A DNA stretch of 37,240 nucleotides, taken from Candidatus Saccharimonadota bacterium (GTDB taxonomy: Bacteria > Patescibacteriota > Saccharimonadia > Saccharimonadales > Saccharimonadaceae). Every line of letters begins with the position of its first letter. The stretch's first letter is position 1. The DNA is taken from positions 72,678 through 109,917 of the forward strand of contig JAFWMO010000010.1 in the NCBI GenBank assembly GCA_017510705.1, read 5' to 3'. Below the pieces are notes generated by a model that was not told where the DNA came from, made no database searches, and worked only from the letters and a program-made list of their open reading frames with translations. The position numbers and the translations under genes are program-made. This document shows, piece by piece, positions 17,169-29,745 of the stretch.

Positions 17169-18464
17169 ATGAAGATTCTTGGAATTGAGACAAGTTGTGA
17201 CGAAACGGCGGCGGCCGTAGTAGAAGATGGGCGCGAGATTTTGTCTAATGTGGTAGTATCGCAAATAGATATCTTTGCTGAATACGGCGGAGTGATCCCA
17301 GAGGTGGCGGCGAGGAGCCATTTGGAGGCAATAATGCCGGTAGTAAACAAAGCCCTCTCTGACGCAAATTGCACCTGGGACGATATTGATGCGATTGCCG
17401 TGACACATGCACCGGGACTTTTGGGCTCACTATTAATTGGGACGCTCACGGCCAGAACACTTGCGATACTTCATAATAAACCACTTTATGCTACCCATCA
17501 CCTGAAGTCACACGTGTATGCGAATTGGCTTAGTAGCGTAAAATCGTCCGACTCGGGGTCGCGTCCAGCCGGCCCATCAGCCCTTCGGGCTGTCTGCGTC
17601 CCAAGGGGCAGTCTGCCATGGGCGGCTGGCGCTAATTCCTCGCTTCGCTCGCACGTCCCAAGGGGTGAACGCGCTGCCGCGCTCCGCAATACCCCGAGCC
17701 CGGACGATTTTACGCTGCCTCAATTTCCTTTACTGGCGCTGGTGGTGTCTGGTGGACATACGCAAATTCTCTATATGAAGGCACACAATCAGTTTGAGAT
17801 TATCGGGACGACGCATGATGATGCGGTGGGGGAGTGTTTTGATAAAGTAGCGAAGATACTGGGGTTGCCTTATCCTGGTGGGCCAAGTATTGCCAAGGCG
17901 GCATCTAGTGGCGATGATAAGAAATATAAATTGCCACATCCGAAAGTTGAAGAGCTAGATTTTTCGTTTTCTGGACTAAAAACTGCGGTGTTAAGGGCGG
18001 TGCAAAAAGAGGTAGGGGTGCCGATTTCGTATCCTTCTCACAAGTTGAAAAAGCTACTAACAAAACAGCAAGTAGCGGATTTTGCGGCGTCATTCCAAAA
18101 AACAGCTGTGGACATCCTTGCGGAAAAATTAAAAATGGCCCTAGAACAACATCCTGACGTGCAATCAGTTGTGGTTGCCGGTGGTGTGAGTGCGAATACG
18201 CTGCTAAGAGAGGAGATGAAAAAGAGATTTTCTCGGGCCGCGTCGCTCGCTCCCATCGCCATGGGGCTCGCGCGCTCGTCCTCGCCTTGCCAGGCTCCGG
18301 ATTCCCTCGAAAATTCTTTTTCCATCTCCTTTCCAGAGCCTTCACTTTCTGGGGATAATGGAGCAATGGTGGCGGCTGCGGCATACTACGAAATTCAGTC
18401 GGGAGTGAAGCCGACTGATCCGTATGCTCTTAATATTTATCCGAGGATATCGATTGAGGGCTAA
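17169..18464 (+). CDS. tsaD: tRNA N6-threonylcarbamoyladenosine transferase TsaD, with two insertions
   Basis: TsaD transfers threonylcarbamoyl to A37 of ANN-decoding tRNAs. Family motifs are present: LGIETSCDETAAAVV, GLLGSLLIG, the metal-binding THHLKSH, ALVVSGGHTQIL, DDAVGECFDKVAKILGLPYPGG, VVAGGVSANTLLREEM and SGDNGAMVAAAAY with the metal-binding Asp. At 431 aa it is ~90 residues longer than usual. The excess is in two in-frame segments, about residues 122-183 and 348-388. Both are encoded by GC-rich palindromic DNA, both fall between conserved motifs, and neither resembles the family. All catalytic motifs remain, so the protein may still work. The gene follows rlmH by 3 nt. Confidence 0.95.
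   Translation: MKILGIETSCDETAAAVVEDGREILSNVVVSQIDIFAEYGGVIPEVAARSHLEAIMPVVNKALSDANCTWDDIDAIAVTHAPGLLGSLLIGTLTARTLAILHNKPLYATHHLKSHVYANWLSSVKSSDSGSRPAGPSALRAVCVPRGSLPWAAGANSSLRSHVPRGERAAALRNTPSPDDFTLPQFPLLALVVSGGHTQILYMKAHNQFEIIGTTHDDAVGECFDKVAKILGLPYPGGPSIAKAASSGDDKKYKLPHPKVEELDFSFSGLKTAVLRAVQKEVGVPISYPSHKLKKLLTKQQVADFAASFQKTAVDILAEKLKMALEQHPDVQSVVVAGGVSANTLLREEMKKRFSRAASLAPIAMGLARSSSPCQAPDSLENSFSISFPEPSLSGDNGAMVAAAAYYEIQSGVKPTDPYALNIYPRISIEG
17534..17716. repeat. In-frame palindromic insertion 1 in tsaD (183 bp)
   Basis: Terminal arms AGCGTAAAATCGTCCG + ACTCGGGG (17534-17557) and the inverted copy (17692-17716) enclose nested hairpins, including CAGCCC-TTC-GGGCTG and CCAGCC..GGCTGG. The length is 61 codons exactly with no stop. 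It sits between the THHLKSH and LVVSGGHT motifs. Confidence 0.9.
18211..18331. repeat. Palindromic insertion 2 in tsaD
   Basis: The left arm (18211-18237, starting AGGAGATGAAAAAGAGA) is native coding sequence for REEMKKRF. The right arm (18305-18331) is an imperfect inverted copy of it. The GC-rich core between them resembles the core in valS (about 39 of the first 53 positions). Confidence 0.85.
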
Positions 18465-24060: not shown

Positions 24061-24066
24061 GAAAGT

Positions 24067-24178
24067 GCGAAACTACAATCTATTTTTCACTTAATCAAGT
24101 AGTGAATGCGGCTATTTACGCAATTTGCTTGATTAAGTAGATTGTAGTTTCGCGACTAAGTAAATAGTCGCATTTTTT
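24067..24178 (+). ncRNA. Structured leader or attenuator upstream of orphan gene A
   Basis: Three competing structures can be drawn. (i) A long stem pairs 24067-24082 and 24090-24099 with 24128-24153, 26 bp in total, with one 7-nt bulge. (ii) A terminator hairpin GCGACTA/TAGTCGC (24152-24171) is followed by six T residues. (iii) TGCGGCTATTTAC (24107-24119) can pair with 24160-24172, which would break the terminator. It may be a cis-regulatory element, or a ~110-nt terminated small RNA. Confidence 0.65.
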
Positions 24179-26969: not shown

Positions 26970-26996
26970 AAAATAGCCCCGTGAGGGGCTATTTTT
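26970..26996. terminator. Bidirectional terminator between orphan gene B and valS
   Basis: AAATAGCCCC-GTGA-GGGGCTATTTTT; A and T runs on both sides. Confidence 0.85.
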
Positions 26997-29718
26997 AGAT
27001 TAGCTCGAGTTGCTGTTTGAGGCGTGAAATCAGCGCCTCTTTTTCTTTGATGCCATCTTGAGTTTCTTTGACCAGGTGTTCTGGAGCCTTTTCAACGTAA
27101 TTTGGATTCATCATACGGGCATTAAGGGCGTCTAATTCGCGGCCAACAACGAGGATTTTCTCGGTGAGGGAATCTTTGTACTCTGTTACGACCTTTTCTG
27201 GAACGTCTAAGTAGAGCTCGTGATTGGCAAGGGCTAGCCGTAGGCCTCTAGGAGCGCCATCTAGGCGATTGATAGCTGGAACACGGGTAAGTGACATGAT
27301 TAATTGCTCGTTGTCCCCTACGAGGCTGTCATTGTCGTACATGAGCTGATATTTTTTGCTGTTATTGGTGCCTGGAAGGGCCTGCAAGGTGGTTCTAATC
27401 TCGGACACGATAGTTCTTATGTTTTCGAATTCTTCGGCCGAAATTGGGTCAAATTTGAAGGATTTTGGCCACTCCGCCACAGCAATAAAGCCATTTGTCC
27501 AGCTAAGATTTTGCCAAATCGTCTCTGTAACGAATGGGGCGAATGGATGCAAAACAATGAGTAAGGCTTCGAGAGTGCTCTTTAGCAATGGAACGTTTTT
27601 GTAAATCTTTTGCGATTCGAGGAACCAGTCTGCGTATTTGTCCCAAATTGTCTGATAGAGAATTTCGCAGGCTTCGGCGAAACGGTAGTCTTTTATTGAG
27701 GCATCAACTTGTTCCAAACATGTGTTAATTTCACGGCAGATCCAGTCTTCACCCATGTTATCGGTTGAATATAATGGAGAATCTGAAATAGTGTTCTCTC
27801 GGGACGGGTCGCTCACGCCCGCCGTTGCGGGGTTCGCGCCCTCATTCTCGGTCGTAACCTCCGAAAGCCCTCGAGCAACACTATTTCCAGATTCTCCTTC
27901 ATCCACTATACCTTGGATGAAGCGGGAAATGTTCCAGAGTTTGTTGCAGAGGTTGCGGCCAGCAATGACGCTGTTTTCGGAAAAGGCTTGGTTCATGCCA
28001 GCGGAGCGACCACGGAGAATACCAAGGCGGAAAGCATCAGAGCCATATTTGGTAACGAGGTCCATTGGGTTAATCACGTTACCCTTGGATTTGCTCATCT
28101 TCTTGCCGTGCTCGTCGAGAACTAGGCCGTGGAGATAGACTTCTTTAAATGGTACTTCACCGGTAACATAGAGTCCCATCATGATCATGCGGGCAACCCA
28201 GGCAAAGAGAATGTCGGCGCCAGTTTCCATGACATTTAGAGGATAATATGGATTGAAGTTTTCTTTGGTCCAGTTGGTGCAAACGATAGGCCAATGCGAG
28301 CTAGAAAACCAAGTGTCAAAAGTGTCTTCGTCGCGAACGTATTTGACACCACCTTTTTCAATTTCTTTGAGATTGGTACGGCGATCAAAAATCCAATCTG
28401 GCTCGTCGGTAGCAGATGCATCAATTTTTCTAAACATTGGAATGGCAATACCCCAAGGGATTTGGCGGGAAATATTCCAGTCTTTGAGATTCTTGAGATA
28501 ATTGATGAGAACTTTCTTTTTGTTCTCTGGGTGGAATTTGATTTCGCCCTTTTCTAGATGCTCAATAGCGGTGGCAGCAAGTTTTTCAACATCTACAAAC
28601 CATTGCTCCTTCAACATTGGTTCAATGGTGGTGCCGCATTTGTAACAGTGGGCCACATTGTGAACAATCTTTTTCTCGCCACGAAGTAAACCGGCTTTTT
28701 CAAGGTCTTTTAGAACTTTTTTGCGGCATTCGGCAGTGGTGAGGCCATAGTATTCTTCTGGTACATTTACCATGGTGCCGTCTTCGGAAATTACCTGGAT
28801 GCGCTCGAGATTGTGGCGCTCGCCAACTTCAAAATCATCAAAATCGTGAGCCGGAGTAATCTTTACGGCGCCAGTGCCATACTCTGGATCGGCGTGTTCA
28901 TCTGCAATAACTGGGATTTCGCGGTCTGTGAGTGGAAGATGAACGGTTTTGCCGATAATATCTTTGTAGCGGGCGTCTTCTGGGTTTACCGCGACAGCGA
29001 CGTCTCCAAAGAGAGTCTCCGGACGTGTAGTAGAAACTATAATCTCTCCACCGTCATAGGTATACGCGATGTCCCAGAGGGAACCTTTTTCATCTTCGTG
29101 CTCAACTTCGATGTCTGCAAAGGCGGTTTGGTGTTTTGGGCAGAAATTGACGAGTTTTTCGCCTCTGTAGATATAGCCGTCGTTCCACATTTTTTCAAAG
29201 GTGGTGTAGACACGGTCAATCACATTTTCGTCTAGAGTGAAGGTGAGGTCGTCCCAAGCACAGGAAGCACCAAGCGCACGGAGCTGGAGCTCCATATTGC
29301 CGCGTTGCATGGCCACAAAATCCCATACTTTAGCGTAGAGCTCATTTCTATCATATTCAAAACGAGTGTGGCCCTGTTTTTCAAGCTCACGTTCGTAGAC
29401 TACCCAAGTCTCAAAGCCGGCATGGTCGGCACCAGGGATATACCAAGCAGAATTACCTTTCAAACGGTGGTAGCGAATAAGAGAATCTTCAAGCGCGATA
29501 GTAAGGCCGTGGCCAATATGCAAGTTGCCATTGGCATTTGGTGGTGGCATAACGATAGAATAACAGTTTTGGCTGGCGGCCTCTCGGTCGTCCGTGCCGT
29601 TGCCGTCGTCATCCTTTGGCACGGTAGGAAGGGAAGGATTAAATATCCCGCTGGCTTCCCAAGCCGCATAAATATCGCTTTCATACTCCCCCGGTTCATA
29701 ACTACTTGAAAATTTCAT
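26995..29718 (-). CDS. valS: Valyl-tRNA synthetase with an inserted segment
   Basis: This 907-aa class Ia synthetase has the HIGH motif as PPPNANGNLHIGHGL and the KMSKS motif as DEHGKKMSKSKGNV, an editing domain between them, and a C-terminal coiled-coil arm (DSLTEKILVVGRELDALNAR onward). It charges tRNA-Val. I start at the ATG at 29718; a TGT-TATAAT (29725-29730) ends 6 nt upstream and overlaps an alternative ATG six codons earlier. Residues about 608-648 (around GNSVARGLSEVTTENEGANP) are an unusual, low-complexity insertion at the junction of the catalytic core and the anticodon-binding domain. It is encoded by a GC-rich palindrome (27776-27897). Confidence 0.97.
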   Translation of the reverse strand: MKFSSSYEPGEYESDIYAAWEASGIFNPSLPTVPKDDDGNGTDDREAASQNCYSIVMPPPNANGNLHIGHGLTIALEDSLIRYHRLKGNSAWYIPGADHAGFETWVVYERELEKQGHTRFEYDRNELYAKVWDFVAMQRGNMELQLRALGASCAWDDLTFTLDENVIDRVYTTFEKMWNDGYIYRGEKLVNFCPKHQTAFADIEVEHEDEKGSLWDIAYTYDGGEIIVSTTRPETLFGDVAVAVNPEDARYKDIIGKTVHLPLTDREIPVIADEHADPEYGTGAVKITPAHDFDDFEVGERHNLERIQVISEDGTMVNVPEEYYGLTTAECRKKVLKDLEKAGLLRGEKKIVHNVAHCYKCGTTIEPMLKEQWFVDVEKLAATAIEHLEKGEIKFHPENKKKVLINYLKNLKDWNISRQIPWGIAIPMFRKIDASATDEPDWIFDRRTNLKEIEKGGVKYVRDEDTFDTWFSSSHWPIVCTNWTKENFNPYYPLNVMETGADILFAWVARMIMMGLYVTGEVPFKEVYLHGLVLDEHGKKMSKSKGNVINPMDLVTKYGSDAFRLGILRGRSAGMNQAFSENSVIAGRNLCNKLWNISRFIQGIVDEGESGNSVARGLSEVTTENEGANPATAGVSDPSRENTISDSPLYSTDNMGEDWICREINTCLEQVDASIKDYRFAEACEILYQTIWDKYADWFLESQKIYKNVPLLKSTLEALLIVLHPFAPFVTETIWQNLSWTNGFIAVAEWPKSFKFDPISAEEFENIRTIVSEIRTTLQALPGTNNSKKYQLMYDNDSLVGDNEQLIMSLTRVPAINRLDGAPRGLRLALANHELYLDVPEKVVTEYKDSLTEKILVVGRELDALNARMMNPNYVEKAPEHLVKETQDGIKEKEALISRLKQQLELI
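27776..27897. repeat. Palindromic in-frame insertion in valS
   Basis: The arms start GGAGAATCTGAAATAGTGTT (27776-27803), with an imperfect inverted copy at 27868-27897. The GC-rich core begins CTCGGGACGGGTCGCTC and ends CCCTCGA, matching the layout of the tsaD insertion 2 core (CTCGGGCCGCGTCGCTC, CCCTCGA). Confidence 0.85.
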
Positions 29719-29745
29719 AAGATTATTATAACACATTTTTAGGCA

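What the first reader, a model, noticed from the sequence alone, without database searches (positions are those of the whole stretch)
27776..27897. valS carries a palindrome with the same core as the tsaD insertion
The cores of the valS and tsaD-2 elements align at about 39 of the first 53 positions (CTCGGG.CG.GTCGCTC at the start, CCCTCGA at the end), while the arms are unrelated. Shared core with site-specific arms, in two essential genes, suggests a family of coding-compatible mobile palindromes.
Basis: seen in the sequence. Interest (0 to 1): 0.8.

Follow-up and report, generated by a model that had tools for sequence, protein, structure and literature searches.

The report
Mobile coding palindromes in Saccharibacteria genes
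Small folded DNA inserts spread through the genes of a group of tiny gut bacteria without breaking them; the folded centre is shared, but the paired ends differ at every site and in several cases can be shown to be a mirror copy of the host gene beside them, a pattern I know from no other mobile DNA.

Summary
It is one copy of a real repeat family. A covariance model finds 20 places in this 658-kb genome (17 strong), copies in 33 of 36 genomes of the genus (Nanosyncoccus-like gut Saccharibacteria) and none in 24 genomes of other families of the order. The core is a covarying three-way junction. 73 of 87 copies lie in long open frames, in both orientations and all six frames. The striking part is the arms. 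Copies with 97-100% identical cores in one genome have unrelated arms, yet each pair of arms is self-complementary. In tatD the right arm encodes invariant LVA codons, so the left arm is its mirror copy; in tsaD-2 the left arm is host. No target-site duplication, Y1 transposase or consistent reverse transcriptase was found. Best reading: RPE-like selfish palindromes whose core is inserted by a templated, foldback-type event that copies one host flank in inverse. Element, family and arm pattern are shown; the mechanism is inferred. New variant of a known kind.

The parts
27776..27796 (+). outer arm of the valS element (3' side in the gene)
   Evidence: Complementary to 27876-27897 with a 1-nt bulge; no arm identity with other own-genome copies
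27797..27875 (+). valS element core (three-way junction, 'GGGACGGGTCGCTC' subtype), antisense to valS
   Evidence: Covariance model R1, 65.7 bits, E 2.3e-15 in the window (it is one of 14 training sequences); near-identical cores in other species
27876..27897 (+). other arm of the valS element (5' side in the gene)
26995..29736 (-). valS, open reading frame of 913 aa reading through the insert (linker before the anticodon-binding domain)
   Evidence: tRNA-synt_1 54-574 and Anticodon_1 664-783, translation; the orthologous linker is empty or filled in 80 loci
17169..18464 (+). tsaD, 431 aa, carries two elements in frame
17533..17718 (+). tsaD-1 element: arms 17533-17550 and 17701-17718, composite core 17552-17698 with two nested mini-palindromes
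   Evidence: 96% identical core at C10:32208 with different arms
18213..18328 (+). tsaD-2 element: left arm 18213-18230 (host codons REEMKKRF), core 18231-18311, right arm 18312-18328 (inverted copy)

Best explanation
The element is one copy of a selfish, protein-coding palindrome family. A constant core of about 75 nt folds as a three-way junction with two hairpins. New copies of the core are inserted at many places, mostly in variable linkers of proteins, where the core is open in about four of six frames and is simply translated. During or just after insertion about 15-25 nt (sometimes more) of one host flank is copied in inverted orientation onto the other side of the core, so the finished insert is host flank, core, inverse copy of that flank. 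The most likely way is foldback-primed, template-switched synthesis: a strand that ends with the core folds back through its GGG/CCC base, copies its own host flank, then rejoins the host DNA with variable loss. Shown: family, structure, in-frame insertion, recurrent insertion at hot linkers, site-specific arms, host origin of one arm in several cases, no target-site duplication. Inferred: mobility as such, foldback synthesis, and the absence of a dedicated transposase.
For: Covariation: 18 pairs with two-sided changes vs 10.6 shuffled, score 0.437 vs 0.176. Copies in 33/36 genus genomes and 0/24 others. 84 of 87 copies have arms above the 99% null; self-complementarity of arms 0.85 vs 0.28 between elements. 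19 within-genome pairs with cores at least 97% identical have arm identity 0.30, the background value. In tatD L325, L328 and L329 the right arm covers invariant LVA codons and the left arm follows each species' own synonymous codons; about 20 empty alleles show HPE, about 15 aa, then LVAIGEVGLDY. tsaD-2 net insert is 99 nt, roughly the 79-nt core plus one 20-nt arm, and the left arm is host-like. No direct repeats outside the arms. Orthologous valS linker 34-42 aa when empty, mostly 58-110 aa when filled, always in frame. Foldback inverted duplications of 5-34 bp are documented at yeast breaks (PMC11724301).
Against: No insertion was seen happening and no conspecific strain pair was held. Net insert lengths run from 63 to 126 nt, so host loss or older inserts must be invoked. 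At most sites the arms lie in variable linkers and their origin cannot be told. The valS-type copies in several species and genes share an arm motif (GAAATAGTGCTCTCTCGGG), so some may move with their arms. In L179 both arms look inserted. Identical cores could also reflect gene conversion between old copies.
Confidence: 0.62

Rival explanations
1. The whole palindrome, arms included, moves as one unit as assumed for Rickettsia palindromic elements; arms then diverge while staying complementary by compensation.
For: valS-type copies at different sites and species share an arm motif; own valS and L155 look like one inherited insert with partly compensated outer arms; L185 and L186 share arms at an orthologous site; L179 net insert of 120 nt seems to include both arms.
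Against: Copies with 100% identical cores in one genome have unrelated but complementary arms (12 such pairs); tatD left arms match the local host codons.
Confidence: 0.15
2. The core inserts into the loop of inverted repeats or terminator hairpins that already exist, so both arms are old host sequence.
For: Many intergenic copies sit in A-tract/T-tract terminator-like contexts; in the methyltransferase gene the net insert is about core-sized (81 nt) and L189 has arm-like repeats without a core.
Against: Inverted repeats of 16-25 bp inside coding sequence are rare (null); empty tatD alleles show no complement to the LVA codons beyond 4-6 nt, filled ones up to 9; net inserts near 99 nt mean sequence was added.
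Confidence: 0.12
3. Old copies stay in place; cores are homogenised by gene conversion and arms by template switching between the two arms, with little recent transposition.
For: Orthologous valS cores are far more alike (about 95-99%) than the genomes (about 76%).
Against: Sites differ between species, including one pair at 91.6% identity, and most orthologous sites are empty in most species.
Confidence: 0.08
4. A structured functional RNA, intron or translational bypass element.
For: Conserved covarying structure.
Against: Copies lie in both orientations (33 sense, 40 antisense) and in all six frames, all open; no Rfam match.
Confidence: 0.02

Closest known systems
Rickettsia palindromic elements (RPE)
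   Same: Palindromes of about 100-150 bp inserted in frame in essential genes, many copies per genome, tolerated in translated protein; from my knowledge and as summarised in PMC6649704.
   Different: Different phylum; here the core is a GC-rich three-way junction and the arms are specific to each site, in several cases a copy of one host flank. I know of no report of site-derived arms for RPE, but the original papers were not held.
Coding palindromes of Nematomorpha mitochondria (PMC6649704)
   Same: Inverted repeats inside coding genes; template switching proposed for arm identity.
   Different: Perfect repeats of up to 284 bp; the paper sets them apart from insertion elements such as RPE, and its abstract describes both arms as coding conserved protein; no shared mobile core is described in what I read.
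Foldback templated insertions at breaks (PMC11724301)
   Same: Inverted copies of 5-34 bp of flank made by foldback synthesis; can combine with insertion of distant sequence.
   Different: Sporadic repair events in yeast, no recurring element.
REP/RAYT and MITEs
   Same: Short palindromic repeats, no coding capacity.
   Different: No Y1 transposase, no conserved terminal inverted repeat, no target-site duplication here.

Membership tests
Rickettsia palindromic element-like coding palindromes (functional class) | Palindromic insert in frame in protein-coding genes, many copies, absent from orthologs | tested here: met
Rickettsia palindromic element-like coding palindromes (functional class) | Sequence homology to an RPE family | not tested
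   No RPE reference was compared; none of 24 genomes from other families of the same order has the core
MITE | Conserved terminal inverted repeats | tested here: not met
   Arms unrelated between copies with identical cores
MITE | Target-site duplication | tested here: not met
   No excess of direct repeats outside the arms in 87 copies; exact ends are uncertain
REP/RAYT | Y1 (RAYT) transposase in the genome | tested here: not met
   PF01797 found in 1 of 40 genus genomes, not in the own genome
Retroelement moved by a reverse transcriptase | Reverse transcriptase in genomes with many copies | tested here: not met
   RVT_1 not found in G003, G004, G018, G025, G026, G029, which hold 6-15 copies; some of these assemblies are incomplete
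Known structured RNA | Rfam match | tested here: not met

The most novel reading that the evidence does not exclude
A new kind of mobile DNA: a conserved folded core that spreads without its own transposase by templated foldback insertion, each insertion making its own terminal inverted repeats by copying the host flank, so that ends are never shared between copies.
Probability: 0.4. Interest if true: 0.9.

Novelty: new variant of a known kind. Interest (0 to 1): 0.78.

Why it matters
Protein-coding palindromes have been a curiosity of Rickettsia with no known mode of movement. Here a dense, actively changing family sits in ultra-small symbiotic bacteria, with dozens of species to compare, and its arms record how insertion occurs. 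It gives a direct route to test replication-coupled, transposase-free mobility, and it explains why ValS, TsaD and TatD of these bacteria carry long variable linkers.

Tried and rejected
Chance or base composition: rejected. Assembly or chimera artefact: unlikely, since copies occur in many independent assemblies and are kept in frame, and one is shared between L185 and L186. Known RNA: no Rfam match. Phage or plasmid carrier: no phage match; one partial chance-like Burkholderia plasmid match; one weak viral-contig hit of 19 bits inside a coding gene, judged chance. Y1 transposase and reverse transcriptase as movers. Target-site duplication. Literature searches for such elements in Saccharibacteria or CPR gave nothing relevant.

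Full report
OBSERVATION. The valS element lies at 27776-27897 within an uninterrupted 913-codon valS. Its core matches the tsaD-2 core at exactly 39 of 53 positions; 5000 shuffles of the valS core averaged 22 and never exceeded 32. It folds far better than dinucleotide shuffles (z -6.2 on the coding strand as DNA). The arms of the two elements are unrelated.

FAMILY. DNA searches of the own genome (657,694 bp, 19 contigs) with the three window elements gave about 19 copies. Fourteen simple copies were aligned and form one structure: a basal GGG/CCC stem, a long hairpin with loop CGCC and a short hairpin with loop TGCC. Eighteen of 26 pairs show changes on both sides against 10.6 in shuffles, covariation score 0.437 against 0.176, and sliding the partner by one column destroys it. 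The covariance model finds 20 places in the own genome at E up to 1, 17 of them at E below 1e-10, and copies in 33 of 36 genomes of the genus, up to 24 per genome, but in none of 24 genomes of other families of the order. That last result is also a negative control. Records of related loci name Candidatus Nanosyncoccus alces and ruminant-gut Saccharibacteria.

CODING. 73 of 87 copies lie in long open frames, 33 sense and 40 antisense, in all six frames. Cores are open in 4.2 of 6 frames on average; shuffled cores of the same composition in 4.0, genomic 81-mers in 2.4. So high GC, not a special code, makes them tolerable. Filled and empty alleles alternate between species: TsaD proteins are about 340 aa without inserts and up to 448 aa in the proteins aligned (single open frames reach 493); the ValS linker before the anticodon-binding domain is 34-42 aa when empty and mostly 58-110 aa when filled, in 80 loci; TatD behaves likewise. 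In L163 and L194, 91.6% identical, the same sites hold different inserts, so turnover is fast.

ARMS. In 84 of 87 copies the arms pair beyond the 99% level of random positions, with a median of 19 nt outside the core. In 94 copies the 16 nt outside the core are 85% self-complementary, against 28% between elements. Nineteen pairs of copies in one genome have cores at least 97% identical, twelve of them 100%, yet their arms are no more alike (0.30) than those of any pair (0.30). For example, three copies in genome G004 (L306, L307, L308) have identical cores and three unrelated sets of arms. The arms are therefore made at the site.

ORIGIN OF THE ARMS. TatD is informative because LVAIGEVGLDY is conserved. 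In three species (L325, L328, L329) the right arm runs into the LVA codons, and the left arm is their reverse complement, following the local synonymous codons (TTA-GTA-GCT in one species, CTT-GTA-GCT in another). Empty alleles show no complement to these codons beyond 4-6 nt. In tsaD-2 of the window the left arm encodes REEMKKRF, matching ortholog residues, and the net insert is 99 nt, about the 79-nt core plus one 20-nt arm. L158 gives the same picture. So one flank, on either side, is host and the other arm is its inverted copy. Net inserts elsewhere range from 63 to 126 nt, which needs variable loss of host sequence or insertion into older inserts. In most other cases the linker is too variable to tell.

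EXCEPTIONS. Copies of the valS subtype in several species share the arm motif GAAATAGTGCTCTCTCGGG. The own valS insert and that of L155 look like one inherited copy whose outer arms changed partly in a compensated way. Some copies may therefore travel with arms, or the arms are kept alike by later template switching. The focal valS copy itself does not show which arm is host.

MOVER. No target-site duplication is seen. The Y1 transposase family is absent from 39 of 40 genomes including the own one. Reverse transcriptases are present in 26 of 40 but not found in several copy-rich genomes. No Rfam family, phage or credible plasmid relative was found. This does not exclude an unknown enzyme.

MECHANISM. 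The simplest account is templated insertion: a strand carrying a core copy folds back through the GGG/CCC base, copies its own host flank for 15-25 nt, then rejoins the host duplex. Foldback inverted duplications of 5-34 bp are known from yeast breaks (PMC11724301), and template switching was proposed for coding palindromes in Nematomorpha mitochondria (PMC6649704). How the core reaches a new site is unknown.

COMPARISON. In what it does the family works like Rickettsia palindromic elements. Membership by descent was not tested. It fails the defining features of MITEs and REP/RAYT that were tested. The site-derived arms are, to my knowledge, not described for any of these; the original RPE papers could not be read here.

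Noticed in passing
L154-L233, valS linker; L128, L332, L343: The same linkers in valS, tsaD and tatD carry several other in-frame inserts, some with unrelated cores, e.g. the peptides SRGAFATTGANDEASPVTTGASEEATRGS and SSTSYTGTPTEPSLRDEPVGSVRNIR.
   Followed up: partly
17552-17698; C10:32208 and C10:47304 of the same genome: Composite cores hold two nested mini-palindromes sharing CGTCCCAAGGGG, one in the hairpin I loop and one before hairpin II.
   Followed up: no
G000 C8:17000 and C9:13660; L240, L246, L251, L265, L267, L271, L285: Intergenic copies sit between an A-tract and a T-tract and look like bidirectional transcription terminators topped by the core.
   Followed up: no
genus genomes (G000:C16:8516 and others): Reverse transcriptase domains in 26 of 40 genomes, up to four per genome; type not determined.
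   Followed up: no
24064-24156: Inverted repeat GCGAAACTACAATCT/AGATTGTAGTTTCGC without the core, mostly between genes; possibly another palindrome type or a remnant.
   Followed up: no
29573-29632: GC-rich stretch coding KDDDGNGTDDREA near the ValS start; L184 has a full element near the same position (aa 74-101), so this may be a remnant.
   Followed up: no
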